Source: Hexactinellida sp. DTS-2022 (Eukaryota > Porifera > Hexactinellida). Taken from it: a stretch of DNA of 64,000 bases. A program made the position numbers and the translations under genes. Each line of letters opens with the position of its first letter. Position 1 is the stretch's first letter. The notes under the pieces are model-generated. The model was not told the DNA's origin. It made no database searches and was given only the letters and a program-made list of their open reading frames with translations. Positions 1 to 48,266 of the stretch are shown one piece after another. Where the stretch lies: assembly GCA_028753945.1 (NCBI GenBank), contig JAPNXP010000002.1, positions 10,602,001 through 10,666,000 of the forward strand, read 5' to 3'.

Positions 1-3000
1 AACAATAACAGCTAGTACAAGTGCTAAAAAGAGTGACTTAATGAAATAATGTTTGTAGCTTATATAAAAGGTAGCAAAACTATCTCAAAGTAGCAAATGA
101 ACTCAAGGAGAACTGCGGAATAAATCTCGCTTGTAGACAAACTAGTAGAGTTACTAGAAATGGCCAGGTAACAACAATAACATCTAGTACAAGTGCTAAA
201 AAGAGTGTCTAAATGAAATAACGTTGGTAGCTTATATAAAAGGTAGCTAACTTATCTCAGAGTAACAAATGAACTCAAGGAGAACTGCGGAATATATCTC
301 GCTAGTAGACAAACTAGTAAAGTTCCCAAAATGGCCAGGTAACAACAATAACAGCTAATACAAGTGCTAAAAAGAGTGTCTAAATGAAATAACGTTGGTA
401 GCTTATATAGAAGGTAGCAAACCTTGCTGAAAGTAGCAAATGAACTAAAGGAGAACTCCGGAATATAGCTCGCTTGTAGACAAATTAGTGAAGCTACTAT
501 AAATGGCCAGATAACATTAATAACACATAGTACAAGTGCAAAAAAGATTGACTTACTGAAATAATGTTTGTAGCTTATATTAAAGGTAGCAAAACTATCT
601 CAAAGTAGCAAATGAACACAGGGAGAACTGCGGAATATAGCTCGCTTGTAGACAAACTAGTGAAGTTACTAGAAATGGCCAGGTAACAACAATAACACAT
701 AGTACAAGTGCTAAAAAGAGTGACTTACTGAAATAATGTTTGTAGCTTTTATTAAAGGTAGCAAAACTATCTCAAAGTAGCAAATGAACACAGGGAGAAC
801 TGCGGAATATAGCACTCTTGTAGACGAACTAGTGAAGACACTAGAAATGGCCAGGTAACAACAATAATAGCTAGTACAAGTGCTAAAAAGAGTGAGTTTC
901 TGAAATAATGTTTGTAGTTTATATAAAAGGTAGCAAAACTATCTCAAAGTAGCAAATGAACTCAAGGAGAACTGCGGAATATATCTCGCTTGTAGACAAA
1001 CTAGTAAAGTTTCTAGAAATGGCCAGGTAACAACAATAACAGCTAGTACAAGTGCTAAAAAGAGTGTCTAAATGAAATAACGTTGGTAGCTTATATAAAA
1101 GGTAGCTAAATTATCTCAGAGTAACAAACGAACTCAAGGAGAACTGCGGTATATATCTCGCTAGTAGACAAACTAGTAAAGTTCCAAAAAATGGCCAGCT
1201 AACAACAATAACAGCTAATACAAGTGCCAAAAAGAGTGTCTAAATGAAATAACGTTGGTAGCTTATATAGAAGGTAGCAAAACTTTCTCAAAGTAGCAAA
1301 TGAACTCAGGGAGAACTGCGGATTATAGCTCGCTTGTAGACAAACTAGTGAAGTTACTAGAAATGGCCAGGTAACAACAATAACAGCTAGTACAAGTGCT
1401 AAAAAGAGTGACTTAATGAAATAATGTTTGTAGCTTATATAAAAGGTAGCAAAACTATCTCAAAGTAGCAAATGAACTCAAGGAGAACTGCGGAATAAAT
1501 CTCGCTTGTAGACAAACTAGTAGAGTTACTAGAAATGGCCAGGTAACAACAATAACATCTAGTACAAGTGCTAAAAAGAGTGTCTAAATGAAATAACGTT
1601 GGTAGCTTATATAAAAGGTAGCTAACTTATCTCAGAGTAACAAATGAACTCAAGGAGAACTGCGGAATATATCTCGCTAGTAGACAAACTAGTAAAGTTC
1701 CCAAAGATGGCCAGCTAACAACAATAACAGCTAATACAAGTGCTAAAAAGAGTGTCTAAATGAAATAACGTTGGTAGCTTATATAGAAGGTAGCAAAACT
1801 ATCTCAAAGTAGCAAATGAACTCAGGGAGAACTGCGGAATATAGCTCGCTTGTAGACAAACTAGTGAAGCTACTATAAATGGCCAGATAACAACAATAAC
1901 ACATAGTACAAGTGCTAAAAATAGGGACTTACTGAAATAATGTTTGTAGCTTATATAAAAGGTAGCAAAACTATCTCAAAGTTGCAAATGAACTCAAGGA
2001 GAACAGCGGAATATATCTCGCTTGTAGACCAACTAGTGAAGCTACTATAAATGGCCAGATAACAACAATAACACATAGTACAAGTGCAAAAAAGATTGAC
2101 TTACTGAAATAATGTTTGTAGCTTATATTAAAGGTAGCAAAACTATCTCAAAGTAGCAAATGAACACAGGGAGAACTGCGGAATATAGCTCGCTTGTAGA
2201 CAAACTAGTGAAGTTACTAGAAATGGCCAGGTAACAACAATAACACATAGTACAAGTGCTAAAAAGAGTGACTTACTGAAATAATGTTTGTAGCTTTTAT
2301 TAAAGGTAGCAAAACTATCTCAAAGTAGCAAATGAACTCAAGGAGAACTGCGGAATATATCTCGCTTGTAGACAAACTAGTAAAGTTACTAGAAATGGCC
2401 AGGTAACAACAATAACAGCTAGTACAAGTGCTAAAAAGAGTGTCTAAATGAAATAACGTTGGTAGCTTATATAGAAGGTAGCAAAACTTTCTCAAAGTAT
2501 CAAATGAACTCAAGGAGAACTGCGGATTATAGCTCGCTTGTAGACAAACTAGTGAAGTTACTAGAAATGGCCAGGTAACAACAATAACAGCTAGTACAAG
2601 TGCTAAAAAGAGTGACTTAATGAAATAATGTTTGTAGCTAATTTAAAAGGTAGCAAAACTATCTAAAAGTAGCAAATGAACTCAAGGAGAACTGCGGAAT
2701 AAATCTCGCTTGTATACAAACTAGTAAAGTTCCCAAAATGGCCAGGTAACAACAATAACAGCTAATACAAGTGCTAAAAAGAGTGTCTAAATGAAATAAC
2801 GTTGGTAGCTTATATAGAAGGTAGCAAACCTTGCTGAAAGTAGCAAATGAACTAAAGGAGAACTCCGGAATATAGCTCGCTTGTAGACAAATTAGTGAAG
2901 CTACTATAAATGGCCAGATAACAACAATAACACATAGTACAAGTGCTAAAAAGAGGGACTTACTGAAATAATGTTTGTAGCTTATATAAAAGGTAGCAAA

Positions 3001-4130
3001 ACTATCTCAAAGTAGCAAATGAACTCAAGGAGAACAGCGGAATATATCTCGCTTGTAGACCAACTAGTGAAGCTACTATAAATGGCCAGATAACAACAAT
3101 AACACATAGTACAAGTGCAAAAAAGATTGACTTACTGAAATAATGTTTGTAGCTTATATTAAAGGTAGCAAAACTATCTCAAAGTAGCAAATGAACACAG
3201 GGAGAACTGCGGAATATAGCTCGCTTGTAGACAAACTAGTGAAGTTACTAGAAATGGCCAGGTAACAACAATAACACATAGTACAAGTGCAAAAAAGATT
3301 GACTTACTGAAATAATGTTTGTAGCTTATATTAAAGGTAGCAAAACTATCTCAAAGTAGCAAATGAACACAGGGAGAACTGCGGAATATAGCTCGCTTGT
3401 AGACAAACTAGTGAAGTTACTAGAAATGGCCAGGTAACAACAATAACACATAGTACAAGTGCTAAAAAGAGTGACTTACTGAAATAATGTTTGTAGCTTT
3501 GAATAAAGGTAGCAAAACTATCTCAAAGTAGCAAATGAACACAGGGAGAACTGCGGAATATAGCACTCTTGTAGACAAACTAGTGAAGACACTGGAAATG
3601 GCCAGGTAACAACAATAATAGCTAGTACAAGTGCTAAAAAGAGTGAGTTTCTGAAATAATGTTTGTAGTTTATATAAAAGGTAGCAAAACTATCTCAAAG
3701 AAGCAAATGAACTCAAGGAGAACTGCGGAATATATCTCGCTTGTAGACAAACTAGTAAAGTTACTAGAAATGGCCAGGTAACAACAATAACAGCTAGTAC
3801 AAGTGCTAAAAAGAGTGTCTAAATGAAATAACGTTGGTAGCTTATATAAAAGGTAGCTAAATTATCTCAGAGTAACAAATGAACTCAAGGAGAACTGCGG
3901 TATATATCTCGCTAGTAGACAAACTAGTAAAGTTCCAAAAAATGGCCAGCTAACAACAATAACAGCTAATACAAGTGCCAAAAAGAGTGTCTAAATGAAA
4001 TAACGTTGGTAGCTTATATAGAAGGTAGCAAAACTTTCTCAAAGTAGCAAATGAACTCAGGGAGAACTGCGGATTATAGCTCGCTTGTAGACAAACTAGT
4101 GAAGTTACTAGAAATGGCCAGGTAACAACA
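1..4130. repeat. Higher-order repeats with 8- and 16-monomer periods
   Basis: The variant order starting at base 1 restarts at 1376, a step of 1,375 bp or eight monomers of 171.9 bp, and again near 4131, 2,755 bp further on. Rare diagnostic variants show the longer period: the AGCACTCTTG variant at 811 recurs at 3562, a step of 2,751 bp or sixteen monomers. Unequal exchange or block amplification of multi-monomer units explains this. The exact unit borders are uncertain because sub-blocks of 2-4 monomers are also duplicated inside. Confidence 0.8.
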
Positions 4131-7100
4131 ATAACAGCTAGTACAAGTGCTAAAAAGAGTGACTTAATGAAATAATGTTTGTAGCTTATATAAAAGGTAG
4201 CAAAACTATCTCAAAAAGCAAATGAACTCAAGGAGAACTGCGGAATAAATCTCGCTTGTAGACAAACTAGTAGAGTTACTAGAAATGGCCAGGTAACAAC
4301 AATAACATCTAGTACAAGTGCTAAAAAGAGGATCTAAATGAAATAACGTTGGTAGCTTATATAAAAGGTAGCTAACTTATCTCAGAGTAACAAATGAACT
4401 CAAGGAGAACTGCGGAATATATCTCGCTAGTAGACAAACTAGTAAAGTTCCCAAAGATGGCCAGCTAACAACAATAACAGCTAATACAAGTGCTAAAAAG
4501 AGTGTCTAAATGAAATAACGTTGGTAGCTTATATAGAAGGTAGCAAAACTATCTCAAAGTAGCAAATGAACTCAGGGAGAACTGCGGAATATAGCTCGCT
4601 TGTAGACAAACTAGTGAAGCTACTATAAATGGCCAGATAACAACAATAACACATAGTATAAGAGCTAAAAAGAGTGACTTAATGAAATAATGTTTGTAGC
4701 TTATATAAAAGGTAGCAAAACTATCTCAAAGTAGCAAATGAACTCAAGGAGAACTGCGGAATAAATCTCGCTTGTAGACAAACTAGTAGAGTTACTAGAA
4801 ATGGCCAGGTAACAACAATAACATCTAGTACAAGTGCTAAAAAGAGTGTCTAAATGAAATAACGTTGGTTGCTTATATAAAAGGTAGCTAACTTATCTCA
4901 GAGTAACAAATGAACTCAAGGAGAACTGCGGAATATATCTCGCTAGTAGACAAACTAGTAAAGTTACTAGAAATGGCCAGGTAACAACAATAATAGCTAG
5001 TACTAGTGCTAAAAAGAGTGACTTACTGAAATAATGTTTGTAGCTTATATAAAAGGTAGCAAAACTATCTCAAAGTAGCAAATGAACACAGGGAGAACTG
5101 CGGAATATAGCTCTCTTGTAGACAAACTAGTGAAGTTACTAGAAATGGCCAGGTAACAACAATAACACATAGTATAAGAGCTAAAAAGAGTGACTTAATG
5201 AAATAATGTTTGTAGCTTATATAAAAGGTAGCAAAACTATCTCAAAGTAGCAAATGAACACAGGGAGAACTGCGGAATATAGCTCTCTTGTAGACAAACT
5301 AGTGAAGTTACTAGAAATGGCCAGGTAACAACAATAATAGCTAGTACAAGTGCTAAAAAGAGTGACTTACTGAAATAATGTTTGTAGTTTATATAAAAGG
5401 TTGCAAAACTATCTCAAAGTAGCAAATAAACTCAAGGAGAACTGCGGAATATATCTCGCTTGTAGACAAACTAGTAAAGTTACTAGAAATGGCCAGGTAA
5501 CAACAATAACAGCTAGTACAAGTGCTAAAAAGAGTGTCTAAATGAAATATCGTTGGTAGCTTATATAAAAGGTAGCTAAATTATCTCAGAGTAACAAATG
5601 AACTCAAGGAGAACTGCGGTATATATCTCGCTAGTAGACAAACAAGTAAAGTTCCCAAAAATGGCCAGCTAACAACAATAACAGCTAATACAAGTGCTAA
5701 AAAGAGTGTCTAAATGAAATAACGTTGGTAGCTTATATAGAATGTAGCAAAACTTTCTCAAAGTAGCAAATGAACTCAGGGAGAACTGCGGACTATAGCT
5801 CGCTTGTAGACAAACTAGTGAAGTTACTAGAAATGGCCAGGTAACAACAATAACAGCTAGTACAAGTGCTAAAAAGAGTGTCTTACTGAAATAATGATTG
5901 TAGCTTACATAAAAGGTAGCAAAACTATCTCAAAGTAGCAAATGAACTCAAGCAGAACTGCGGAATATATCTCGCTTGTAGACAAACTAGTAAAGTTACT
6001 AGAAATGGCCAGGTAACAACAATAACAGCTAGTACAAGTGCTAAAAAGAGAGTCTAAATGAAATAACGTTGGTAGCTTATATAAAAGGTAGCTAACTTAT
6101 CTCAGAGTAACAAATGAACTCAAGGAGAACTGCAGAATATATCTCGCTAGTAGACAAACTAGTAAAGTTCCCAAAGATGGCCAGCTAACAACAATAACAG
6201 CTAATACAAGTGCTAAAAAGAGTGTCTAAATGAAATAACGTTGGTAGCTTATATAGAAGGTAGCAAAACTATCTCAAAGTATCAAATGAACTCAGGGAGA
6301 ACTGCGGAATATAGCACGCTTGTAGACAAACTAGTGAAGCTACTATAAATGGCCAGATAACAACAATAACACATAGTATAAGTGCTAAAAGAGTGACTTA
6401 ATGAAATAATGTTAGTAGCTTATATAAAAGGTAGTAAAACTATCTCAAAGTAGCAAATGAACTCAAGGAGAACTGCGGAATATATTTCGCTTGTAGACAA
6501 ACTAGTGAAGTTACTAGAAATGGCCAGGTAACAACAATAACACATAGTACAAGTGCTAAAAAGAGTGACTTACTGAAATAATGTTTGTAGCTTCTATTAA
6601 AGGTAGCAAAACTATCTCAAAGTAGCAAATGAACACAGTGAGAACTGCGGAATATAGCTCTCTTGTAGACAAACTAGTGAAGTTACTAGAAATGGCCAGG
6701 TAACAACAATAATAGCTAGTACAAGTGCTAAAAAGAGTGACTTACTGAAATAATGTTTTTAGTTTATATAAAAGGTAGCAAAACTATCTCAAAGTAGCAA
6801 ATGAACTCAAGGAGAACTGCGGAATATATCTCGCTTGTAGACAAACTAGTAAAGTTACTAGAAATGGCCAGGTAACAACAATAACAGCTAGTACAAGTGC
6901 TAAAAAGAGTGTCTAAATGAAATAACGTTGGTAGCTTATATAAAAGGTAGCTAAATTATCTCAGAGTAACAAATGAACTCAAGGAGAACTGCGGTATATA
7001 TCTCGCTAGTAGACAAACAAGTAAAGTTCCCAAAAATGGCCAGCTAACAACAATAACAGCTAATACAAGTGCTAAAAAGAGTGTCTAAATGAAATAACGT

Positions 7101-8040
7101 TGGTAGCTTATATAGAAGGTAGCAAAACTTTCTCAAAGTAGCAAATGAACTCAGGGAGAACTGCGGATTATAGCTCGCCTGTAGACAAACTAGTGAAGTT
7201 ACTAGAAATGGCCAGGTAACAACAATAACACCTAGTACAAGTGCTAAAAAGAGTGTCTTACTGAAATAATGATTGTAGCTTATATAAAAGGTAGCAAAAC
7301 TATCTCAAAGTAGCAAATGAACTCAAGGAGAACTGCGGAATATATCTCGCTTGTAGACAAACTAGTAGAGTTACTAGAAATGGCCAGGTAACAACAATAA
7401 CATCTAGTACAAGTGCTAAAAAGAGTGTCTAAATGAAATAACGTTGGTAGCTTATATAAAAGGTAGCTAACTTATCTCAGAGTAACAAATGAACTCAAGG
7501 AGAACTGCGGAATATATCTCGCTAGTAGACAAACTAGTAAAGTTCCCAAAGATGGCCAGCTAACAACAATAACAGCTAATACAAGTGCTAAAAAGAGTGT
7601 CTAAATGAAATAACGTTGGTGCCTTATATAGAAGGTAGCAAAACTATCTCAAAGTAGCAAATGAACTCAGGGAGAACTGCGGAATATAGCTCGCTTGTAG
7701 ACAAACTAGTGAAGCAACTATAAATGGCCAGATAACAACAATAACACATAGTACAAGTGCTAAAAAGAGTGACTTAATGAAATAATGTTTGTAGCTTATA
7801 TAAAAGGTAGCAAAACTATTTCAAAGTAGCAAATGAACACAAGGAGAACTGCGGAATATATCTCGCTTGTAGACCAACTAGTGAAGCTACTATAAATGGC
7901 CAGATAACAACAATAACACATAGTACAAGTGCTAAAAAGAGTAACTTACTGAAATAATGTTTGTAGCTTATATAAAAGGTAGCAAAACTATCTCAAAGTA
8001 GCAAATGAACTCAAAGAGAACTGCGGAATATATCTCGCTT

Positions 8041-11000
8041 GTAGGCAAACTAGTAAATTTACAAGAAATGGCCAGGTAACAACAATAACAGACAGTACTA
8101 ATGCTAAAAAGTGTGACTTACTGAAATAATGTTTGTAGCTTATATAAAAGGTAGGCAAACCTATCTCAAAGTAACAAATGAACTCAGGGATAAACTGCGG
8201 AATATATCTCGCTTGTAGACCAACTAGTGAAGTTACTATAAATGGCCAGATAACAACAATAACACATAGAACAAGTGCTAAAAAGATGGACTTACTGAAA
8301 TAATGTTTGTAGCTTATATAAAAGGTAGCAAAACTATCTCAAAGTAGCAAATGAACTCAATGAGAACTGAGGAATATATCTCGCTTGTAGACCAACTAGT
8401 GAAGCTACTATAAATGGCCAGATAACAACAATAACACATAGTACAAGTGCTAAAAAGAGTGACTTACTGAAATAATGTTTGTAGCTTATATAAAAGGTAG
8501 CAAAACTATCTCAAAGTAGCAAATGAACTCAAAGAGAACTGCGGAATATATCTCGCTTGTAGGCAAACTAGTAAATTTACAAGAAATGGCCAGGTAACAA
8601 CAATAACAGACAGTACTAATGCTAAAAAGTGTGACTTACTGAAATAATGTTTGTAGCTTATATAAAAGGTAGGCAAACCTATCTCAAAGTAACAAATGAA
8701 CTCAGGGATAAACTGCGGAATATATCTCGTTAGTAGACCAACTAGTGAAGTTACTATAAATGGCCAGATAACAACAATAACACATAGAACAAGTGCTAAA
8801 AAGATGGACTTACTGAAATAATGTTTGTAGCTTATATAAAAGGTAGCAAAACTATCTCAAAGTCGCAAATGAACTCAATGAGAACTGAGGAATATATCTC
8901 GCTTGTAGACCAACTAGTGAAGATACTATAAATGGCCAGATAACAACAATAACACATAGTACAAGTGCTAAAAAAGAGTGACTTACTGAAATAATGTTTG
9001 TAGCTTATATAAAAGGTAGCAAAACTATCTCAAAGTAGCAAATGAACTCAAGGAGAACTGCGGAATATATCTAGCTTGTAGACAAACTAGTAAAGTTACA
9101 AGAAATGGCCAGGTAACAACAATAACAGACAGTACTAATGCTAAAAAGAGTGACTTACTGAAATAATGTTTGTAGCTTATATAAAAAGTAGGCAAACCTA
9201 TCTCAAAGTAACAAATGAACTCATGGATAAACTGCGGAATATATCTCGCTTGTAGACCAACTAGTGAAGTTACTATAAATGGCCAGATAACAACAATAAC
9301 ACATAGAACAAGTGCTAAAAAGATGGACTTACTGAAATAATGTTTGTAGCTTATATAAAAGGTAGCAAAACTATCTCAAAGTAGCAAATGAACTCAAGGA
9401 GAACTTCGGAATATAGCTCGCTTGTAGACAAACTAGTGAAGCTACTATAAATGGCCAGATAACAACAATAACACATAGTACAAGTGCTAAAAAGAGTGAC
9501 TTACTGAAATAATGTTTGTAGGTTATATAAAAGGTAGCAAAACTATCTCAAAGTAGCGGATGAACTCAATGAGAACTGAGGAATATATCTCGCTTGTAGA
9601 CCAACTAGTGAAGCTACTATAAATGGCCAGATAACAACAATAACACATAGTACAAGTGCTAAAAAAGAGTGACTTACTGAAATAATGTTTGTAGCTTATA
9701 TAAAAGGTAGCAAAACTATCTCAAAGTAGCAAATGAACTCAAGGAGAACTGCGGAATATATCTAGCTTGTAGACAAACTAGTAAAGTTACAAGAAATGGC
9801 CAGGTAACAACAATAACAGACAGTACTAATGCTAAAAAGAGTGACTTACTGAAATAATGTTTGTAGCTTATATAAAAAGTAGGCAAACCAATCTCAAAGT
9901 AACAAATGAACTCATGGATAAACTGCGGAATATATCTCGCTTGTAGACCAACTAGTGAAGTTACTATAAATGGCCAGATAACAACAATAACACATAGAAC
10001 AAGTGCTAAAAAGATGGACTTACTGAAATAATGTTTGTAGCTTATATAAAAGGTAGCAAAACTATCTCAAAGTAGCAAATGAACTCAAGGAGAACTTCGG
10101 AATATAGCTCGCTTGTAGACAAACTAGTGAAGCTACTATAAATGGCCAGATAACAACAATAACACATAGTACAAGTGCTAAAAAGAGTGACTTACTGAAA
10201 TAATGTTTGTAGGTTATATAAAAGGTAGCAAAACTATCTCAAAGTAGCAGATGAACTCAAGGAGAACTGCGGAATATATCTCGCTTGTAGACCAACTAGT
10301 GAAGCTACTATAAATGGCCAGATAACAACAATAACACATAGTACAAGTGCTAAAAAGAGTGACTTACTGAAATAATGTTTGTAGCTTATATAAAAGGTAG
10401 CAAAACTATCTCAAAGTAGCAAATGAACTCAAGGAGAACTGCGGAATATATCTCGCTTGTAGACAAACTAGTAAAGTTACAAGAAATGGCCAGGTAACAA
10501 CAATATCAGACAGTACTAATGCTAAAAAGAGTGACTCACTGAAATAATGTTTGTAGCTTATATAAAAAGTAGGCAAACCTATCTCAAAGTAACAAATGAA
10601 CTCAGGGATAAACTTCGGAATATATCTCGCTTGTAGACCAACTAGTTAAGTTACTATAAATGGCCAGATAACAACAATAACACATAGTACAAGTGCTAAA
10701 AAGAGGGACTCACTGAAATAATGTTTGTAGCTTATATAAAAGGTAGCAAAACTATCTCAAAGTAGCAAATGATCTCAAGGAGAACTGCGGAATATATCTC
10801 GCTTGTAGACCAACTAGTGAAGTAACTAGAAATGGCCAGGTAGCAACAATAACAGCTAGTGCAAGTGCTAAAAAGAGTGACTTACTGAAATAACGTTTGT
10901 AGCTTATATAAAAGATCTCTAACTTATCTCAGAGTAACAAATGAACTCAGGGAGAACTGCGGAATATATCTCGCTAGTAGACAAACTAGTGAAGTTCCAA

Positions 11001-13320
11001 AAATGGCCAGGTACAACAATAACAGCTAATACAAGTGCTAAAAAGAGTGACTAAATGAAATAACGTTGGTTGCTTATATAGAAGGTAGCAAACCTTGTGA
11101 AAGTAGCAAATGAACTAAAGGAGAACTGCGGAATATAGCTCGCTTGTAGACAAACTAGTGAAGCTACTATAAATGGCCAGATAACAACAATAACACATAG
11201 TACAAGTGCTAAAAAGAGGGACTTACTGAAATAATGTTTGTAGCTTATATAAAAGGTAGCAAAACTATCTCAAAGTAGCAAATGAACTCAAGGAGAACTG
11301 CGGAATATATCTCGCTTGTAGACCAACTAGTGAAGCTACTATAAATGGCCAGATAACAACAATAACACATAGTACAAGTGCTAAAAAGAGTAACTTACTG
11401 AAATAATGTTTGTAGCATATATAAAAGGTAGCAAAACTATCTCAAAGTAGCAAATGAACTCAAGGAGAACTGCGGAATATATCTCGCTTGTAGGCAAACT
11501 AGTAAATTTACAAGAAATGGCCAGGTAACAACAATAACAGACAGTACTAATGCTAAAAAGTGTGACTTACTGAAATAATGTTTGTAGCTTATATAAAAGG
11601 TAGGCAAACCTATCTCAAAGTAACAAATGAACTCAGGGATAAACTGCGGAATATATCTCGTTTGTAGACCAACTAGTGAAGTTACTATAAATGGCCAGAT
11701 AACAACAATAACACATAGAACAAGTGCTAAAAAGATGGACTTACTGAAATAATGTTTGTAGCTTATATAAAAGGTAGCAAAACTATCTCAAAGTCGCAAA
11801 TGAACTCAATGAGAACTGAGGAATATATCTCGCTTGTAGACCAACTAGTGAAGCTACTATAAATGGCCAGATAACAACAATAACACATAGTACAAGTGCT
11901 AAAAAGAGTGACTTACTGAAATAATGTTTGTAGCTTATATAAAAGGTAGCAAAACTATCTCAAAGTAGCAAATGAACTCAAGGAGAACTGCGGAATATAT
12001 CTAGCTTGTAGACAAACTAGTAAAGTTACAAGAAATGGCCAGGTAACAACAATAACAGACAGTACTAATGCTAAAAAGAGTGACTTACTGAAATAATGTT
12101 TGTAGCTTATATAAAAAGTAGGCAAACCTATCTCAAAGTAACAAATGAACTCATGGATAAACTGCGGAATATATCTCGCTTGTAGACCAACTAGTGAAGT
12201 TACTATAAATGGCCAGATAACAACAATAACACATAGAACAAGTGCTAAAAAGATGGACTTACTGAAATAATGTTTGTAGCTTATATAAAAGGTAGCAAAA
12301 CTATCTCAAAGTAGCAAATGAACTCAAGGAGAACTGCGGAATATAGCTCGCTTGTAGACAAACTAGTGAAGCTACTATAAATGGCCAGATAACAACAATA
12401 ACACATAGTACAAGTGCTAAAAAGAGTGACTTACTGAAATAATGTTTGTATGTTATATAAAAGGTAGCAAAACTATCTCAAAGTAGCAGATGAACTCAAG
12501 GAGAACTGCGGAATATATCTCGCTTGTAGACCAACTAGTGAAGCTACTATAAATGGCCAGATAACAACAATAACACATAGTACAAGTGCTAAAAAGAGTG
12601 ACTTACTGAAATAATGTTTGTAGCTTATATAAAAGGTAGCAAAACTATCTCAAAGTAGCAAATGAACTCAAGGAGAACTGCGGAATATATCTCGCTTGTT
12701 GACAAACTAGTAAAGTTACAAGAAATGGCCAGGTAACAACAATATCAGACAGTACTAATGCTAAAAAGGATGACTCACTGAAATAATGTTTGTAGCTTAT
12801 ATAAAAAGTAGGCAAACCTATCTCAAAGTAACAAATGAACTCAGGGATAAACTTCGGAATATATCTCGCTTGTAGACCAACTAGTTAAGTTACTATAAAT
12901 GGCCAGATAACAACAATAACACATAGTACAAGTGCTAAAAAGAGGGACTTACTGAAATAATGTTTGTAGCTTATATAAAAGGTAGCAAAACTATCTCAAA
13001 GTAGCAAATGATCTCAAGGAGAACTGCGGAATATATCTCGCTTGTAGACCAACTAGTGAAGTAACTAGAAATGGCCAGGTAGCAACAATAACAGCTAGTG
13101 CAAGTGCTAAAAAGAGTGACTTACTGAAATAACGTTTGTAGCTTATATAAAAGATAGCTAACTTATCTCAGAGTAACAAATGAACTCAGGGAGAACTGCG
13201 GAATATATCTCGCTAGTAGACAAACTAGTGAAGTTCCAAAAATGGCCAGGTACAACAATAACAGCTAATACAAGTGCTAAAAAGAGTGACTAAATGAAAT
13301 AACGTTGGTTGCTTATATAG
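8041..13320. repeat. Higher-order repeats with 4- and 13-monomer periods
   Basis: Marker variants recur at fixed steps. The ATATCTAGCTTG variant lies near 9071, 9762 and 12001, steps of 691 bp (four monomers) and 2,239 bp (thirteen monomers). The AAGTAGCAGATG variant at 10242 recurs at 12481, again 2,239 bp. The TTGTAGGCAAAC variant occurs at 8041, 8559 and 11490. A subgroup with GGTAGGCAAACC and GGATAAACTGCGG is confined mainly to this block. The two 13-monomer units are nearly identical by eye. Confidence 0.8.
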
Positions 13321-31100: not shown

Positions 31101-31190
31101 AACTGCGAAATATATCTCGCTTGTAGACAAACTAGTAAAGTTACAAGAAATGGCCTGGTAACAACAATAACAGATAGTACTAATGCTAAA
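25140..31190. repeat. 12-monomer higher-order unit, 2,049 bp, about three copies
   Basis: Long identical blocks recur at exactly 2,049 bp: for instance the block at 25436-25711 returns at 27485-27760 and 29534-29809. The next return is at 31242, only 1,708 bp on, because the third copy lacks 341 bp (two monomers): at about 30,378 the sequence jumps from a GAAGGTAGC monomer to the GAAGGTCGAAAAAC monomer that normally lies two monomers later. By eye the copies differ at only a few positions per unit, so amplification is recent. Confidence 0.9.
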
Positions 31191-36235: not shown

Positions 36236-38810
36236 GATATAGCTCGCTTGTAGACAAACTAGTGAAGTTACTAGAAATGGCCAGGTAACAAAAATAACAG
36301 CTTAGTACAGTACATAATGGACATAGTGATAATGGATATATGTACAAGTGCAAAAAAGAGTGCTTCACTGAAAAAACGTCTGTAGCTTTTATAAAAGGTA
36401 TCAAACCTTGCTGAAAGTAGCAAATGAACTCTGGGAGAACTGCGGAATATATCACGCTTGTAGAAAAACTAGTGAAGTTACAAGAAATGGCCAGATAACA
36501 ACAATAACAGCTAGTACAAGTGGTAAAAAGAGTGACTTACTGAAATAATGTTTGTAGCTTATATATAAAGTAGCAAACCTTGCTGAAAGTAGCAAATGAA
36601 CTCAAGGAGAACTGCGAAATATATCTCGCTTGTAGACAAACTAGTAAAGTTACAAGAAATGGCCAGGTAACAACAATAACAGATAGTACTAATGCTAAAA
36701 AGAGTGACTCACTGAAATAATGTTTGTAGCTTATATAAAAGGTAGCAAAACTATCTCAAAGTAGCAAATGAACTCATGGAGAACTGCGGAATATATCTCG
36801 CTTGTAGACAAACTAGTGAAGTTCACAGAAATGGCCAGGTAACAACAATAACAGCTAATACAAGTGATAAAATGAGTGACTTAATAAATAACGTTTGTAG
36901 CTTATTGAAGGTAGCAAAACTATCTCAAAGTAGCAAATGAACGCAAGGAGAACTGCGGAATATATCTCGCTTGTAGACCAACTAGTGAAGTTACTATAAA
37001 TGCCCAGATAACAACAATAACACATAGTACAAGTGCTAAAAAGGTGGCTTACTAAAATAATGTTTGTAGCTTATATAAAAGGTAGCAAAACTATCTCAAA
37101 GTAGCAAATGAACTCAAGGAGAACTGCGGGATATAGCTCGCTTGTAGACAAACTAGTGAAGTTACTAGAAATGGCCAGGTAACAAAAATAACAGCTTAGT
37201 ACAGACCATAATGGACATTGTGATAATGGATATATGTACAAGTGCAAAAAAGAGTGCTTCACTGAAAAAACGTCTGTAGCTTATATAAAAGGTAGCAAAC
37301 CTTGCTGAAAGTAGCAAATGAACTCAGGGAGAACTGCGGAATATATCTCGCTTGTAGACAAACTAGTGAAGTTACAAGAAATGGCCAGATAACAACAATA
37401 ACAGCTAGTACAAGTGCTAAAAAGAGTGAACTTACTGAAATAACGTTTGTAGCATTATATAAAAGGTAGCAAACCTTGCTGAAAGTAGCAAATGAACTCA
37501 AGGAGAACTGCGAAATATATCTCGCTTGTAGACAAACTAGTAAAGTTACAAGAAATGGCCTGGTAACAACAATAACAGATAGTACTAATGCTAAAAAGAG
37601 TGACTTACTGAAATAATGTTTGTAGCTTATATAAAAGGTAGCAAACTTAACTCAAAGTAACAAATGAACTCAGGGAGAACTGCGGAATATATCTCGCTTG
37701 TAGACAAGCTAGTGAATTTCCCAGAAATGGCCAGGTAACAACAATAACAGCTAATACAAGTGCTAAAAAGAGTGTCTTAATGAAACAACGTTGGTAGCTT
37801 ATAGAAGGTAGCAAAAATATCTCAAAGCAGCAAATGAACTCAAGGAGAACTGCGGAAGATATCTCGCTTGTAGACCAAATAGTAAAGTTACTAGAAATGG
37901 CCAGGTAACAACAATAACAGCTAATACAAGTGCTAAAAAGAGTGTCTAAATGAAATAACGTTGGTAGCTTATATAGAAGGTAGCAAACCTTGCTGAAAGT
38001 AGCAAATGAACTCAAGGAGAACTGTGGAATATAGCTAGCTTGTAGACAAACTAGTGAAGTTACTAGAAATGGCCAGATATCAACAATAACACATAGTACA
38101 AGTGCTAAAAAGAGTGACTTAAAAAATAACGTTTGTAGATTATAGAAGGTAGCAAAACTATCTCAAAGTAGCAAAAGACCTCAAGGAGAACTGCGGAATA
38201 TATCTCGCATGTAGAGAAACTAGTGAAGTTACAAGAAATGGCCAGGTAACAACAATAACAGCTAATACAAGTGCGAAAAAGAGTGACTTAATAAATAACG
38301 TTTGTAGCTTATAGAAGGTAGCAAAACTATCTCAAAGTAGCAAATGAACGCAAGGAGAACTGCGGAATAAATCTCGGTTGTAGACCAACTGATAAAGTTA
38401 CAAGAAATGGCCAGGTAACAACAATAACACATAGTACAAGTGCTAAAAAGAGTGACTTACTGAACTAATGCTTGTAGCTTATATAAAAGGTAGCAAAACT
38501 ATCTCAAAGTAGAAAATGAACTCAAGGAGAACTGCGGAATATATCCCGCTTGTAGACCAACTAGTAAAGTTACAAGAAAGGGCCAGGTAACAACAATAAC
38601 AGATAGTATTAATGCTAAAAAGAGTGACTTACTGAAATAATGTTTGTAGCTTATTGAAGGTAGCAAAACTATCTCAAAGTAGCAAATGAACTCAAGGAGA
38701 ACTGCGGAATATATCTCGCTTGTAGACCAACTAGTGAAGTTACTATTAATGGCCAGGTAACAATAATAACAGCTTAGTACAGACCATAATGGACATAGTG
38801 ATAATGGATA

Positions 38811-39376
38811 TACACTAACCAGCCAAAAGTATTTGAACAATTGGAATTAAATTTCAGACACATTAGTAGTCTTGTAACTTATTAACGGCTGTTCAAACAA
38901 CTCTGAAATGACTATAAATATCTTGCTATAGTTGTATATTACTCAATATTTTAAATTCACATCATTTAGTCAATATCCATCAAGTGGCATAAGTGCATCT
39001 GCCACGTGCCACTTGTGGCACAAGTGGCACAAATGGGAATGTGGCTGTATTTCTGTAGAAAATGAACATAATTATTTGAAATTATGCACCCTGAGTAATT
39101 CGACCATTTCGCATTCAAATCTGCAATCAGAACTTGTATATTCTCATTACATCTTGATGGTCAGAATTATATATTTAATTAGCTAATTATATAGTTAATG
39201 AGTTTAACACCTCCATATAAATGTAAATTCAAAAATTTTGCAGTTTTATTATAATTTAAATATCGTATCATGTAAATAGCAGTGTTGATGAATCCATCAA
39301 TGCTATTATGCTGCTAGAAGCTGGAATGTATATATACAAATTATTGCTGTTCAAATACTTTTGGCCGGTGAGTGTA
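38811..39376. mobile_element. Mariner-type MITE in the satellite, TA target site
   Basis: A 562 bp insert (38813-39374) begins CACTAACCAGCCAAAAGTAT and ends in the near-complement of that, ACTTTTGGCCGGTGAGTG. It is bounded by TA on both sides (38811-38812 and 39375-39376), and excising it with one TA restores the satellite string GATATATGTACAAG. TA duplication and this style of terminus are typical of the Tc1/mariner superfamily. The centre carries a strong palindrome built on GCCACTTGTGGCACAAGTGG. No transposase is encoded. A 564 bp sister copy in opposite orientation lies at 47620-48183. Confidence 0.92.
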
Positions 39377-42300
39377 TGTACAAGTGCAAAAAAGATTGCT
39401 TCACTGAAATAACGTCTGTAGCTTATATAAAAGGTAGCAAACCTTGCTGAAAGTAGCAAATGAACTCAGGGAGAACTGCGGAATATATCTCGCTTGTAGA
39501 CAAACTAGTGAAGTTACAAGAAATGGCCAGATAACAACAATAACAGCTAGTACAAGTGCTAAAAAGAGTGACTTACTGAAATAACGTTTGTAGCATAATA
39601 TAAAAGGTAGCAAACCTTGCTGAAAGTAGCAAATGAACTCAAGGAGAACTGCGAAATATATCTCGCTTGTAGACAAACTAGTAAAGTTACAAGAAATGGC
39701 CTGGTAACAACAATAACAGATAGTACTAATGCTAAAAAGAGTGACTTACTGAAATAATGTTTGTAGCTTATTGAAGGTAGCAAAACTATCTCAAAGTAGC
39801 AAATGAACTCAAGGAGAACTGCGGAATATATCTCGCTTGTAGACCAACTAGTGAAGTTACTATTAATGGCCAGATAACAACAATAACACATAGTACAAGT
39901 GCTAAAAAGGTGACTTACTAAAATAATGTTTGTAGCTTATATAAAAGGTAGCAAAACTATCTCAAAGTAGCAAATGAACTCAAGGAGAACTGCGGGATAT
40001 ATCTCGCTTGTAGACAAACTAGTGAAGTTACATGAAATGGCCAGGTAACAAAAATAACAGCTTAGTACAGACCATAATGGACATAGTGATAATGGATATA
40101 GTATGTACAAGTGCAAAAAAGAGTGCTTCACTGAAATAACGTCTGTAGCTTATATAAAAGGTAGCAAACCTTGTTGAAAGTAGCAAATGAACTCAGGGAG
40201 AACTGCGGAATATATCTCGCTTGTAGATAAACTAGTGAAGTTACAAGAAATGGCCAGATAACAATAATAACAGCTAGTACAAGTGCTAAAAAGAGTGACT
40301 TACTGAAATAACGTTTGTAGCATAATATAAAAGGTAGCAAACCTTGCTGAAAGTAGCAAATGAACTCAAGGAGAACTGCGAAATATATCTCGCTTGTAGA
40401 CAAACTAGTAAAGTTACAAGAAATGGCCTGGTAACAACAATAACAGATAGTACTAATGCTAAAAAGAGTGACTTACCGAAATAATGTTTGTAGCTTACAT
40501 AAAAGGTAGCAAACTTAACTCAAAGTAACAAATGAACTCAAGGAGAACTGCGGAATATATCTCGCTTGTAGACAAGCTAGTGAATTTCCCAGAAATGGCC
40601 AGGTAACAACAATAACAGCTAATACAAGTGCTAAAAAGAGTGTCTTAATGAAACAACGTTGGTAGCTTATAGAAGGTAGCAAAGATATCTCAAAGTAGCA
40701 AATGAACTCAAGGAGAACTGCGGAATAAATCTCGCTTGTAGACAAACTAGTGAAGTTACAAGAAATGGCCAGGTAACAACAATAACAGCTAATACAAGTG
40801 CGAAAAAGAGAGACTTAATAAATAACGTTTGTAGCTTATAGAAGGTAGCAAAACTATCTCAAAGTAGCAAATGAACTCAAGGAGAACTGCGGAATAAATC
40901 TCGCTTGTAGACCAACTGATATAGTTACAAGAAATGGCCAGGTAACAACAATAACACATAGTACAAGTGCTAAAAAGATTGACTTACTGAACTAATGTTT
41001 GTAGCTTATATAAAAGGTAGCAAAACTATCTCAAAGTAGAAAATGAACTCAAGGAGAACTGCGGAATATATCCCGCTTGTAGACCAACTAGTAAAGTTAC
41101 AAGAAAGGGCCAGGTAACAACAATAACAGATAGTATTAATGCTAAAAAGAGTGACTTACTGAAATAATGTTTGTAGCTTATATAGAAGGTAGCAAAACTA
41201 TCTCAAAGTAGCAAATGAACTCAGGGAGAACTGCGGAATAAATCTCGCTTGTAGACCAACTAGCAAAGTTACAAGAAATGGTCAGGTAACAACAATAACA
41301 CATAGTACAAGTGCTAAAAAGAGTGACTTAATAAATAACGTTTGTAGCTTATAGAAGGTCGAAAAACTATCTCAAAGTAGAAAAAGAACTCAAGGAGAAC
41401 TGCGGAATATATCCCGCATGTAGCCCAACTAGTGAAGTTACTAGAAATGGCCAGGTAACAACAATAACAGATAGTACAAGTGCTAAAAAGAGTGACTTAC
41501 GGAAATAATGTTTGTAGCTTATATAAAAGGTAGCAAAACTATCTCAAAGTAGCAAAGAACTCAAGGAGAACTGCGGAATATATCCCGCTTGTAGACCAAC
41601 TAGTAAAGTTCTCGAAATGGCCAGGTAACAACAATAACAGATAGTACTAATGCTAAAAAGAGTGACTTACTATATTTATGTTTGTAGCTTATATAAAAGG
41701 TAACAAAACTATCCCAAAGTAGCAAATGAACTCAAGGAGAACTGCGAAATATATCTCGCTTGTAGACAAACTAGTGAAGTTACTATAAATGGCCAGATAA
41801 CAACAATAACACATAGTACAAGTGCTAAAAAGGTGACTTACTAAAATAATGTTTGTAGCTTATATAAAAGGTAGCAAAACTATCTCAAAGTAGCAAATGA
41901 ACTCAAGGAGAACTGCGGGAAATAGCTCGCTTGTAGACAAACTAGTGAAGTTACTAGAAATGGCCAGGTAACAAAAATAACAGCTTAGTACAGACCATAA
42001 TGGACATAGTGATAATGGATATATGTACAAGTGCAAAAAAGAGTGCTTCACTGAAATAACGTCTGTAGCTTATATAAAAGGTAGCAAACCTTGCTGAAAG
42101 TAGCAAATGAACTCAGGGAGAACTGCGGAATATATCTCGCTTGTAGACAAACTAGTGAAGTTACAAGAAATGGCCAGATAACAACAATAACAGCTAGTAC
42201 AAGTGCTAAAAAGAGTGACTTACTGAAATAACGTTTGTAGCATTATATAAAAGGTAGCAACCTTGCTGAAAGTAGCAAATGAACTCAAGGAGAACTGCGA

Positions 42301-45300
42301 AATATATCTCGCTTGTAGACAAACTAGTAAAGTTACAAGAAATGGCCTGGTAACAACAATAACAGATAGTACTAATGCTAAAAAGAGTGACTTACTGAAA
42401 TAATGTTTGTAGCTTATATAAAAGGTAGCAAACTTAACTCAAAGTAACAAATGAACTCAGGGAGAACTGCGGAATATATCTCGCTTGTAGACAAGCTAGT
42501 GAATTTCCCAAAAATGGCCAGGTAACAACAATAACAGCTAATACAAGTGCTAAAAAGAGTGTCTTAATGAAACAACGTTGGTAGCTTATAGAAGGTAGCA
42601 AAAATATCTCAAAGTAGCAAATGAACTCAAGGAGAACTGCGGAAGATATCTCGCTTGTAGACCAACTAGTAAAGTTACTAGAAATGGCCAGGTAACAACA
42701 ATAACAGCTAATACAATTGCTAAAAAGAGTGTCTAAATGAAATAACGTTGGTAGCTTATATAGAAGGTAGCAAACCTTGCTGAAAGTAGCAAATGAACTC
42801 AAGGAGAACAGCGGAATATAGCTAGCTTGTAGACAAACTAGTGAAGTCACTAGAAATGGCCAGATAACAACAATAACACATAGTACAAGTGCTAAAAAGA
42901 GTGACTTAAAAAATAACGTTTGTAGATTATAGAAGGTCGCAAAACTATCTCAAAGTAGCAAAAGAACTCAAGGAGAACTGCGGAATATATCTCGCATGTA
43001 GACAAACTAGTGAAATTACAAGAAATGGCCAGGTAACAACAATAACAGCTAATACAAGTGCGAAAAAGAGTGACTAAATAAATAACGTTTGTAGCTTATA
43101 GAAGGTAGCAAAACTATCTCAAAGTTGTAAATGAACTCAAGGAGAACTGCGGAATAAATCTCGCTTGTAGACCAACTGATAAAGTTACAAGAAATGGCCA
43201 GGTAACAACAATAACACATAGTACAAGTGCTAAAAAGAGTGACTTACTGAACTAATGTTTGTAGCTTATATAAAAGGTAGCAAAACTATCTCAAAGTAGA
43301 AAATGAACTCAAGGAGAACTGCGGAATATATCCCGCTTGTAGACCAACTAGAAAAGTTACAAGAAAGGGCCAGGTAACAACAATAACAGATAGTATTAAT
43401 GCTAAAAAGAGTGACTTACTGAAATAATGTTTGTAGCTTATATAGAAGGTAGCAAAACTATCTCAAAGTAGCAAATGAATTCAGGGAGAACTGCGGAATA
43501 AATCTCGCTTGTAGACCAACTAGTAAAGTTACAAGAAATGGCCAGGTAACAACAATAACACATAGTACAAGTGCTAAAAAGAGTGACTTACTGAACTAAT
43601 GTTTGTAGCTTATATAAAAGGTAGCAAAACTATCTCAAAGTAGCAAATGAACTCAGGGAGAACTGCGGAATATATCCCGCTTGTAGACCAACTAGTGAAG
43701 TTACTATAAATGGCCAGATAACAACAATAACACATAGTACAAGTGCTAAAAAGGTGACTTACTGAAATAATGTTTGTAGCTTATATAAAAGGTTGCAAAA
43801 CTATCTCAAAGTAGCAAATGAACTCAAGGAGAACTGCGGGAAATAGCTCGCTTGTAGACAAACTAGTGAAGTTACTAGAAATGGCCAGGTAACAAAAATA
43901 ACAGCTTAGTACAGTACATAATGGACATAGTGATAATGGATATATGTACAAGTGCAAAAAAGAGTGCTTCACTGAAATAACGTCTGTAGCTTATATAAAA
44001 GGTAGCAAACCTTGCTGAAAGTAGCAAATGAACTCAGGGAGAACTGCGGAATATATCTCGCTTGTAGACAAACTAGTGAAGTTACAAGAAATGGCCAGAT
44101 AACAACAATAAAAGCTAGTACAAGTGCTAAAAAGAGTGACTTACTTAAATAACGTTTGTAGCATTATATAAAAGGTATCAAACCTTGCTGAAAGTAGCAA
44201 ATGAACTCAAGGAGAACTGCGAAATATATCTCTCTTGTAGACAAACTAGTAAAGTTACAAGAAATGGCCTGGTAACAACAATAACAGGTAGTACTAATGC
44301 TAAAAAGAGTGACTTACTTAAATAATGTTTGTAGCTTATATAAAAGTTAGCAAACTTAACTCAAAGTAACAAATGAACTCAGGGAGAACTGCGGAATATA
44401 TCTCGCTAGTAGACAACCTAGTGAATTTCCCAGAATTGGCCTTGTAACAACAATAACAGCTAATACAAGTGCTAAAAAGAGTGTCTTAATGAAACAACGT
44501 TGGTAGCTTATAGAAGGTAGCAAAACTATCTCAAAGTAGCAAATGAACTCAAGGAGAACTGCGGAAGATATCTCGCTTGTAGACCAACTAGTAAAGCTAC
44601 TAGAAATGGCCAGGTAACAACAATAACAGCTAGTACAAGTGCTAAAAAGAGTTACTTACTGAAATAATGTTTGTAGCTTATATACAAGGTAGCAAAACTA
44701 TCTCAAAGTAGCAAATGAACTCAAGGAGAACTGCGGAATATAGCTCGCTTGTAGACAAACTAGTGAAGTTACTAGAAATGGCCAGGTATCAACAATAACA
44801 TCTAGTACAAGTGCTAAAAAGAGTGATTTACTGAAATAACGTTTGTAGCTTATATAAAAGATTGCTAACTTATCTCAGAGTAACAAATGAACTCAGGGAG
44901 AACTGCGGAATATATCTCGCTAGTATACAAACTAGTGAAGTTCCCAAAATGGCCAGGTAACAACAATAACAGCTAATACTAGTGCTAAAAAGAGTGTCTA
45001 AATGAAATAACGTTGGTAGCTTATATAGAAGGTAGCAAACCTTGCTGAAATTAGCAAATGAACTAAAGGAGAACTGCGGAATATAGCTCGCTTGTAGACA
45101 AACTAGTGAAGCTACTATAAATGGCCAGATAACAACAATAACACCTAGTACAAGTGCTAAAAAGAGGGACTTACTGAAATAATGTTTGTAGCTTATATAA
45201 AAGGTAGCAAAACTATCTCAAAGTAGCAAATGAACTCAAAGAGAACAGCGGAATATATCTCGCTTGTAGACCAACTAGTGAAGCTACTATAAATGGCCAG

Positions 45301-47555
45301 ATAACAACAATAACACATAGTACAAGTGCTAAAAAGAGTGCTTTTCTGAAATTTCGTCTGTAGCTTATATAAAAGGTAGCAAACCTTGCTGAAAGTAGCA
45401 AATGAACTCAGGGAGATCTGCGGAATATATCTCGCTTGTAGACCAACTAGTAAAGTTACAAGAAATCCCCAGGTAACTACAATAAAGTTAGTACAAATGC
45501 TAAAAAGAGTGACTTATTAAAATAATGTTTGTAGCTTATATAAAAGGTAGCAAACCTATCTCAAAGTAACAAATGAACTCAGGGAGAACTGCAGAATGTA
45601 TCTCGCTTGTAGACAAACTAGTAAAGTTTCAAGAAATGGCCAGGTAACAACAATAAAGATAGTACAAATGCTAAAAAGAGTGACTTATTGAAATAATGTT
45701 TGTAGCTTATATAAAAGGTAGCAAACCTATCTCAAAGTAGCAAATGAACTCAGGGAGAACTGCGGAATATATCCCGCTTGTAGACCAACTAGAAAAGTTA
45801 CAAGAAAGGGCCTGGTAACAACAATAACAGATAGTACTAATGCTAAAAAGAGTGACTTACTTAAATAATGTTTGTAGCTTATATAAAAGTTAGCAAACTT
45901 AACTCAAAGTAACAAATGAACTCAGGGAGAACTGCGGAATATATCTCGCTAGTAGACAACCTAGTGAATTTCCCAGAATTGGCCTTGTAACAACAATAAC
46001 AGCTAATACAAGTGCTAAAAAGAGTGTCTTAATGAAACAACGTTGGTAGCATATAGAAGGTAGCAAAACTATCTCAAAGTAGCAAATGAACTCAAGGAGA
46101 ACTGCGGAAGATATCTCGCTTGTAGACCAACTAGTAAAGCTACTAGAAATGGCCAGGTAACAACAATAACAGCTAGTACAAGTGCTAAAAAGAGTTACTT
46201 ACTGAAATAATGTTTGTAGCTTATATACAAGGTAGCAAAACTATCTCAAAGTAGCAAATGAACTCAAGGAGAACTGCGGAATATAGCTCGCTTGTAGACA
46301 AACTAGTGAAGTTACTAGAAATGGCCAGGTATCAACAATAACATCTAATACAAGTGCTAAAAAGAGTGATTTACTGAAATAACGTTTGTAGCTTATATAA
46401 AAGATTGCTAACTTATCTCAGAGTAACAAATGAACTCAGGGAGAACTGCGGAATATATCTCGCTAGTATACAAACTAGTGAAGTTCCCAAAATGGCCAGG
46501 TAACAACAATAACAGCTAATACTAGTGCTAAAAAGAGTGTCTAAATGAAATAACGTTGGTAGCTTATATAGAAGGTAGCAAACCTTGCTGAAATTAGCAA
46601 ATGAACTAAAGGAGAACTGCGGAATATAGCTCGCTTGTAGACAAACTAGTGAAGCTACTATAAATGGCCAGATAACAACAATAACACCTAGTACAAGTGC
46701 TAAAAAGAGGGACTTACTGAAATAATGTTTGTAGCTTATATAAAAGGTAGCAAAACTATCTCAAAGTAGCAAATGAACTCAAAGAGAACAGCGGAATATA
46801 TCTCGCTTGTAGACCAACTAGTGAAGCTACTATAAATGGCCAGATAACAACAATAACACATAGTACAAGTGCTAAAAAGAGTGCTTCACTGAAATTTCGT
46901 CTGTAGCTTATATAAAAGGTAGCAAACCTTGCTGAAAGTAGCAAATGAACTCAGGGAGATCTGCGGAATATATCTCGCTTGTAGACCAACTAGTAAAGTT
47001 ACAAGAAATCCCCAGGTAACTACAATAAAGTTAGTACAAATGCTAAAAAGAGTGACTTATTAAAATAATGTTTGTAGCTTATACAAAAGGTAGCAAACCT
47101 ATCTCAAAGTAACAAATGAACTCAGGGAGAACTGCAGAATGTATCTCGCTTGTAGACAAACTAGTAAAGTTTCAAGAAATGGCCAGGTAACAACAATAAA
47201 GATAGTACAAATGCTAAAAAGAGTGACTTATTGAAATAATGTTTGTAGCTTATATAAAAGTTAGCAAACCTATCTCAAAGTAGCAAATGAACTCAGGGAG
47301 AACTGCGGAATATATCCCGCTTGTAGACCAACCAGTAAAGTTACAAGAAATGGCCAGATAACAACAATAACAGCTAGTATAAGTGTATAAAGAGTTATTC
47401 ACTGGAACAACTTCTGTAGTTTAGATAGAATGTAGCAAATGAATCACAAAGTAACAAATGAACTCAAGGAGAACTGCGGAATATATCTCGCTTGTTGACC
47501 AACTAGTGAAGTTACAAGAAATGGCCAGGTAACAATAATAACAGGCAATACAAGT
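39377..47555. repeat. Satellite array, segment 4 and right border
   Basis: About 47 further monomers run to the right edge of the array. The final two monomers (about 47,350-47,555) are clearly diverged: they read GTGTATAAAGAGTTATTCAC, CAACTTCTGTAGTTTAGATA and TTGTTGACC where the consensus has AGTGCTAAAAAGAGTGACT, AATGTTTGTAGCTTATAT and TTGTAGACC. The array then stops inside a monomer, after GGCAATACAAG. Diverged edge monomers are what satellite homogenisation models predict. Confidence 0.95.
44265..47350. repeat. 1,543 bp tandem duplication (nine monomers) at the array edge
   Basis: The block at about 44,265-45,807 returns at about 45,808-47,350 with an offset of 1,543 bp; for example the stretch at 45213-45401 recurs at 46756-46944. 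I noticed roughly half a dozen single-base differences, so it is older than the 2,820 bp duplication but still recent. It lies directly against the degenerate terminal monomers. Confidence 0.85.
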
Positions 47556-47617
47556 TTTTTTGACTCACCGGGTTTTTTAGAAGTCAAATTCTTGTGTTAT
47601 TATAATATTAACTCTCG

Positions 47618-48185: not shown

Positions 48186-48266
48186 TATCATATTTGAATA
48201 GTTAATGTCCGCCGCTTAATTGTCAAATAGAGGGATTTTGTGTTCTTTTTTTGTTCCACTATTAAA

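What the first reader, a model, noticed from the sequence alone, without database searches (positions are those of the whole stretch)
1..47555. Multi-tier higher-order satellite with an alpha-satellite-like 171-172 bp monomer
Roughly 260 monomers show at least five distinct higher-order periods (4, 8/16, 12, 13 and 9 monomers, plus a 2,820 bp unit) in one array. HOR satellites of this complexity are best known from primate centromeres; here the monomer length coincides but the sequence is unrelated. The array may be a centromere or a large heterochromatic block of this invertebrate.
Basis: partly seen in the sequence, partly recalled or inferred. Interest (0 to 1): 0.7.

Follow-up and report, generated by a model that had tools for sequence, protein, structure and literature searches.

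The report
Two-locus 172-bp satellite, locally block-duplicated
A 72-kilobase run of a 172-base repeat with short, recent block duplications was found at two places in this genome assembly, inside a stretch copied between two chromosomes, so it looks like an ordinary fast-changing satellite rather than the genome's general centromere.

Summary
The window begins inside a single-orientation array of 401 monomers (C11:10,577,977-10,649,544; window 1-47,544, 261 monomers), modal spacing 172 bp, mean pairwise identity 88%. Tandem block repeats of 3, 4, 8, 9, 12, 13, 14 and 16 monomers are real, including the 2,820-bp unit, but each has only about 1.5-3 tandem copies; some short blocks recur at five or six irregular places. 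No period runs through the array: a patchwork of recent local duplications, not a homogenised primate-style array.

Whole-genome pattern counts fit two loci: this array and an inverted 78-kb array on C2 (one hit unplaced; reverse hits accounted for by density). Both lie in a paralogous block of about 117 kb. Flank samples differ by 0.78% substitutions. The arrays differ more: 12 of 12 C2 samples reach at most 94.03% to the C11 array, and the 107 sampled C2 monomers share no run of three. Array turnover after the duplication is inferred.

No CENP-B box was found. A different 212-bp satellite sits at 25 of 36 contig ends. A general centromere role is not supported; a role on C11 and C2 alone cannot be excluded.

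The parts
1..47544 (+). 172-bp satellite array, window part: 261 of 401 monomers. The array starts outside the window at C11:10,577,977 and ends at C11:10,649,544.
   Evidence: TRF; nhmmer monomer cut; count in window
530..4656 (+). 16-monomer block duplication, period 2,751 bp, about 1.5 copies, 99.1% over 8 monomers
5172..7751 (+). 8-monomer block duplication, period 1,375 bp, 97.7% over 7 monomers
7923..9303 (+). 3-monomer block repeat, period 518 bp, 98.3% over 5 monomers
8959..10684 (+). 4-monomer block repeat, period 691 bp, 98.9% over 6 monomers
9650..13610 (+). 13-monomer block duplication, period 2,240 bp, 99.3% over 10 monomers
13098..16528 (+). 14-monomer block duplication, period 2,401 bp, 97.7% over 6 monomers
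25198..30319 (+). 12-monomer block repeat, period 2,049 bp, 99.8% over 18 monomers (2.5 copies)
30665..36304 (+). 16-monomer block duplication, period 2,820 bp (contains 40-bp-insert monomers), 99.7% over 16 monomers (2 copies)
   Evidence: insert variants
44291..47205 (+). 9-monomer block duplication, period 1,543 bp, 99.6% over 8 monomers
23240..43945 (+). Region holding 11 monomers of 209-212 bp that carry a 39-42-bp insert; the same insert sequence precedes the insertion at 38,775, a twelfth site
   Evidence: list of 11 inserts; sequence at 38,770
17748..18658 (.). 0.9-kb insertion in the array, related in pieces (89% over 137 bp, 69% over 483 bp) to the dispersed element at 58,064-59,809
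20628..21613 (.). 1-kb non-autonomous hAT-like insertion: inverted ends CAGGGATGGATCCA / TGGATCCATCCCTG, 8-bp target duplication AACTCAGG
   Evidence: direct sequence; the hAT label rests on recalled rules for this superfamily
38775..39377 (.). 0.6-kb insertion with Tc1-like inverted ends, 87% identical over 573 bp to 48,189-47,618 just outside the array
   Evidence: the Tc1 label is recalled
47556..58064 (.). Right flank of the paralogous block, shared with C2 from 2,767,931 to the C2 array edge, inverted; 97.7-99.7% identical where sampled
50410..52907 (-). Mutator-like transposase (PF20700, E 1e-52) with a PHD-finger match below its cut-off, in separate minus-strand frames (broken or intron-split), in the right flank

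Best explanation
This is an interstitial, low-copy, AT-rich satellite array with no shown role. It grows and shrinks by duplication and loss of blocks of a few to about 16 monomers (unequal exchange or replication slippage), which leaves a patchwork of low-copy 'higher-order' units of different sizes. A region of about 117 kb containing the array was copied in inverted orientation between C11 and C2. Since then each array has turned over separately, so the flanks still match at about 99% while no higher-order unit was found in common between the C11 array and the sampled part of the C2 array. SHOWN: the array, the local blocks, the two-locus distribution in the assembly, the paralogous flanks and the array divergence in the samples. 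INFERRED: the exchange mechanism, the order of events, and the absence of function.
For: Local block runs far exceed shuffles, and no period is array-wide. Near-identical partners are mostly local: of 358 monomers with a partner above 0.96, the best lies within 30 monomers for 306 and beyond 100 for 19. Pattern counts: the 363 forward hits equal the count in the C11 stretch. The 435 and 423 reverse hits compare with about 437 and 416 expected from the density in 18.3 kb sampled of the 78.3-kb C2 array (my arithmetic). Flanks: 74 substitutions in 9,598 aligned columns over 11 samples. Block ends. Arrays: 107 sampled C2 monomers (of about 457) have a best C11 partner of 94.8% on average, 6 of 107 reach 0.97, and no run of 3 at >=0.96 exists. 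12 of 12 further C2 samples reach at most 94.03%, against 32 of 40 C11 self-controls at >=97%. At the left edge only the outermost monomer matches its counterpart at 98.2%. No significantly conserved window was found: lowest-entropy windows of 12, 17 and 25 bases have P = 0.066, 0.40 and 0.64.
Against: Replacement of 72-78 kb within 0.78% of flank divergence is very fast for block duplications of this size; gene conversion between the flanks, or another history, might be needed. Monomer by monomer, the two loci are not much further apart than distant parts of one array: against 107 monomers, C11 monomers score 0.937 on average in the C2 sample and 0.950 in C11 monomers more than 100 places away, so the case rests on the missing shared runs. 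Some blocks recur at five or six places in the array, more than simple pairwise duplication gives. The nucleosome-sized monomer and AT-richness (GC about 0.35) also fit centromeric satellites. Arrays on other contigs could be missing from the assembly.
Confidence: 0.75

Rival explanations
1. The arrays are chromosome-specific centromeres (or centromere cores) of C11 and C2, other chromosomes using other sequences.
For: Monomer of nucleosomal size, AT-rich, one large array on each of the two contigs, interior in both (C11 10.6 of 15.56 Mb; C2 2.8 of 6.34 Mb). The arrays differ more than their flanks.
Against: Hits were accounted for on only 2 of 18 contigs. The array was carried between chromosomes inside a duplicated block of about 117 kb. 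No CENP-B box, though such a box is not required (PMC8122249, passage). The array is small, at 72 kb.
Confidence: 0.12
2. The C2 copy is an assembly artefact: an alternative haplotype of the C11 locus placed on C2, so there is one locus with two alleles.
For: Flank divergence of 0.78% is in the range of ordinary heterozygosity (recalled). The two blocks are of similar length (116.4 and 117.8 kb).
Against: Both C2 junctions were read and lie in continuous sequence without N. A 1.5-kb query at C11 11.006 Mb had no C2 match among 40 of 383 candidates scored, and one at 9.006 Mb matched C2 only in part, at a place that does not fit collinearity (40 of 381 scored), so C2 does not look like a haplotig of C11. 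Alleles would be expected to share array structure; the samples do not.
Confidence: 0.12
3. A higher-order satellite maintained by selection, for example as heterochromatin or a protein-binding array, with homogenised units as in primate centromeres.
For: Higher-order blocks are real, and some 4-7-monomer blocks recur at five or six irregular places.
Against: No tandem unit exceeds about 3 copies and there is no dominant period; no significantly conserved window and no CENP-B box.
Confidence: 0.05

Closest known systems
Low-copy-number satellite DNAs, e.g. of Tribolium castaneum (PMC10218199)
   Same: AT-rich monomers in the preferred 140-180-bp range, most on one or a few chromosomes, transposable elements nearby, some dimeric HORs reported (passages read)
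   Different: Many of those arrays were not much longer than five repeats in that assembly. Here the array is 72 kb, with blocks of 3-16 monomers, and a pair of paralogous arrays can be compared.
Primate alpha satellite HOR arrays
   Same: Monomer of about 171 bp, divergent monomers grouped into multi-monomer units
   Different: Units are local and of low copy number, with no long homogenised HOR; no CENP-B box; found on 2 of 18 contigs. Alpha-satellite properties are from the review PMC8122249 (passages read) and general knowledge.
Monomeric satellite evolving by unequal exchange (recalled model)
   Same: Mean monomer identity of 88%, irregular local duplications, transposon insertions in the array
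   Different: Many recent blocks: 155 of 401 monomers have an exact twin.

Membership tests
Alpha-satellite-like centromeric HOR satellite | Monomer of about 171 bp in tandem | tested here: met
   Modal spacing 172 bp, 243 of 401
Alpha-satellite-like centromeric HOR satellite | A homogenised higher-order unit repeated many times | tested here: not met
   Tandem units in about 1.5-3 copies, no dominant lag
Alpha-satellite-like centromeric HOR satellite | CENP-B box | tested here: not met
   0 matches to the nine-base core with up to 1 mismatch on either strand (shuffles: 5); 11 with 2 mismatches against a mean of 66 in 3 mononucleotide shuffles (motif recalled)
Alpha-satellite-like centromeric HOR satellite | Present at the centromere of most chromosomes | tested here: not met
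   Pattern counts accounted for by loci on C11 and C2, the reverse hits by density; one forward hit of the second pattern not placed
Alpha-satellite-like centromeric HOR satellite | CENP-A binding | not testable with these tools
   Needs chromatin data
Alpha-satellite-like centromeric HOR satellite | Sequence homology to alpha satellite | not tested
   No alpha-satellite sequence was aligned
Low-copy satellite DNA | Tandem monomers on one or a few chromosomes, small genome fraction | tested here: met
   Two arrays, together about 150 kb = 0.13% of 112.4 Mb. This is slightly above the 0.1% per satellite used for the label in PMC10218199.
Segmental duplication | Two collinear copies of high identity with defined ends | tested here: met
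   C11:10,543,704-10,660,064 and C2:2,767,931-2,885,775, inverted, 97.7-100% in 11 flank samples. One interior C2 sample, L044, has no collinear C11 match and marks an indel.

The most novel reading that the evidence does not exclude
The two arrays are a natural clock for satellite turnover. After one inter-chromosomal duplication dated by 0.78% flank divergence, both 72-78-kb arrays were replaced almost monomer for monomer, keeping little more than an edge monomer, possibly because they became rival chromosome-specific centromeres under drive.
Probability: 0.1. Interest if true: 0.65.

Novelty: new member of a known kind. Interest (0 to 1): 0.32.

Why it matters
As a satellite it is ordinary. 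Its use is as a dated pair: paralogous flanks give an internal clock against which array turnover and the birth of higher-order blocks can be measured directly. It also cautions against reading primate-style HORs and centromeres from local blocks of low copy number.

Tried and rejected
General centromere satellite: rejected on distribution. The array as coding sequence: I take the long minus-strand open frames as a by-product of the repeat; no family search was made on them. RNA gene: Rfam gave 0 matches at gathering scores and ARAGORN 0 tRNAs in the window. C2 as a haplotig of C11: disfavoured. A viral carrier of the monomer: 0 exact matches to a 40-base pattern in viral contigs. A conserved binding window: none significant. 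A degenerate monomer at 48,438-48,584 (HMM score 20.1) was left out of the 401; the 161 bases around it also occur identically in L017, and I treat it as a weak or chance match. Species identification: on a recalled hunch I looked at sponge genome papers and chromosome sizes (one moth paper), listings and abstract starts only; no sponge genome listed with a size was 112.4 Mb, and the organism stays unidentified.

Rows dropped and limits: the flank count leaves out L044 and L049, which have no collinear counterpart. L050, L053-L056 and L058-L070 gave only dispersed-repeat-like matches or none, but were compared only with the C11 pieces I had fetched (L011-L030 and the window). In the genome search DNA mode only the best candidates are scored (3 of 9; 40 of 381, 40 of 383, 29 of 29, 19 of 8,983 and 40 of 5,643), so the two-locus claim rests on the pattern counts. 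Pattern listings show only the first places, about 100; the reverse hits were not placed one by one. One search's self-control found no full-length match for 1 of 40 pieces.
Full report
WHAT IS THERE. The window is C11:10,602,001-10,666,000 of a 112.4-Mb genome in 18 contigs. It starts inside a tandem array. TRF reports 172-bp periods over 1-47,555 with breaks. I joined three 10-kb pieces to the left with the window, and an HMM cut gives 401 monomers in one orientation, C11:10,577,977-10,649,544; 261 start in the window. Mean pairwise identity is 0.881. Modal spacing is 172 bp, with 11 monomers of 209-212 bp carrying a 39-42-bp insert.

HIGHER-ORDER STRUCTURE. At lags 1-40 no period dominates: the best, lag 12, has mean identity 0.895 and 10.4% of pairs above 0.97. 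Runs of at least 3 consecutive monomers at >=0.96 (lags 1-119) number 125, against a mean of 0.55 (maximum 2) in 20 random orders. As tandem units they have about 1.5-3 copies. Beyond that, some short blocks recur without a fixed spacing: the four monomers at 24,132 match at lags 46, 62, 74, 87 and 98, so at six places, and a block of about seven just left of the window at up to five. 358 of 401 monomers have a partner above 0.96, for 306 of them within 30 monomers, and 155 have an exact twin. This is a patchwork of recent, mostly local block duplications.

WHERE ELSE IT OCCURS. A 33-base pattern from the monomer (up to 3 mismatches) gives 363 forward and 435 reverse hits in the whole genome. 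The C11 stretch holds 363 forward hits (362 when counted in separate pieces). The listed reverse hits all lie on C2, but the list is cut. C2 samples show the array running from 2,778,457 to 2,856,712. Hit density in 18.3 kb of it predicts about 437, against 435 observed. A second pattern gives 378 forward and 423 reverse hits; 377 forward hits are in the C11 stretch and about 416 reverse are expected, so one forward hit is not placed. So in this assembly the satellite sits at two loci, about 0.13% of the genome.

A DUPLICATED BLOCK. C2 and C11 are collinear, in inverted orientation, on both sides of the arrays. Homology ends at window 58,064 (C11:10,660,064 / C2:2,767,931), within a few bases of where a dispersed element begins on C11, and on the other side at C11:10,543,704 / C2:2,885,775 (no C2 match for C11:10,534,001-10,542,000 other than repeats among 40 of 5,643 candidates scored). 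Over 11 flank samples (9,598 aligned columns, 97.7-100% identity) there are 74 substitutions, 0.78%, and 61 gap bases. One interior sample (L044) has no collinear counterpart and marks an indel. C2 does not look like the other haplotype of C11: a query at C11 11.006 Mb had no C2 match, and one at 9.006 Mb only a partial match at a place that does not fit collinearity (candidates scored in each), and both C2 junctions are continuous sequence. A local misassembly cannot be fully excluded.

ARRAYS DIFFER MORE THAN FLANKS. Of 107 sampled C2 monomers, the best C11 partner averages 94.8%; 6 reach 0.97, and no run of 3 at >=0.96 is shared, while 86 of 107 have a >=0.97 partner within the C2 sample. 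Twelve 600-bp C2 samples at 5-kb steps reach at most 94.03% to any part of the C11 array; of 40 random C11 pieces, 32 find a >=97% match elsewhere in C11 and 1 finds none of full length. A tempering control: with 107 comparison monomers, C11 monomers score 0.937 on average against the C2 sample and 0.950 against C11 monomers more than 100 places away, so single monomers separate the loci only weakly, and the argument rests on the missing shared runs. At the left edge the outermost monomers match at 98.2% like the flank, and the next ones do not. At the right edge the last C2 monomer is closest to C11's next-to-last (95.3%), and the others match far away. Given 0.78% in the flanks, blocks that are 99-100% identical are mostly younger than the duplication (inference). 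Gene conversion of the flanks would be another reading.

CENTROMERE TESTS. No CENP-B core was found with up to one mismatch, and no window of the monomer is significantly conserved. The array is interior in both contigs. Insertions break it at three places: one with an 8-bp target duplication and hAT-like ends, one with Tc1-like ends, and one related to the element at 58,064 (labels recalled). The surroundings hold transposon-like genes (Mutator-like; integrase) and an NHL-repeat frame. A different, 212-bp satellite, 100% homogeneous in the first 10 kb of C11, is found at 25 of 36 contig ends and gives 809 + 784 hits. If any satellite is general in this genome, that is the better candidate of the two.

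COMPARISON. In Tribolium castaneum, low-copy satellites with 140-180-bp AT-rich monomers, most on one or a few chromosomes, some with dimeric HORs, are described (PMC10218199, passages). Alpha-satellite and CENP-B statements follow PMC8122249 (passages). By those standards this is a low-copy satellite with irregular local HORs. Searches for sponge satellites and HORs in invertebrates returned no listing that is plainly this satellite; only listings were seen, and the organism is unidentified.

VERDICT. Observation confirmed, with the HORs reinterpreted as local blocks of low copy number. Centromere not supported as a general role, open for C11 and C2 alone. Ordinary kind, with one useful extra: a flank-dated pair of arrays.

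Noticed in passing
L028 (C11:1-10000), C2 both ends, contig ends L071-L109: A 212-bp satellite, without significant similarity to the 172-bp monomer and 100% homogeneous in the first 10 kb of C11, matches 25 of 36 contig ends tested (60-330 bases each); C2's start reads N, with the repeat from 3.2 kb in. A search for four TTAGGG units with up to 1 mismatch found one place, interior on C11. Chromosome ends may carry this satellite instead of a simple telomere repeat, or the assembly stops short of it.
   Followed up: partly
window 58064-59809: Dispersed element with a large imperfect inverted repeat and a perfect 30-nt hairpin near one end. First look gave 8,983 candidates (19 scored); listed matches lie on at least 11 contigs, several as clusters with about 1.0-1.2-kb spacing. 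It marks the right end of the duplicated block.
   Followed up: partly
L030 (C11:5,004,001-5,010,027) and C11:10,780,246-10,786,286, C11:8,869,672-8,876,351, C5:2,680,506-2,692,606: A 1.5-kb stretch occurs as inverted pairs at four places, 96-100% identical to the query, like a large element with long inverted ends.
   Followed up: no
window 50410-52907: Mutator-like transposase gene in separate minus-strand frames, with a PHD-finger-like stretch.
   Followed up: no
window 23240-43945: Eleven monomers carry the same 39-42-bp insert at the same point; a Tc1-like element lies next to a twelfth copy at 38,775.
   Followed up: partly
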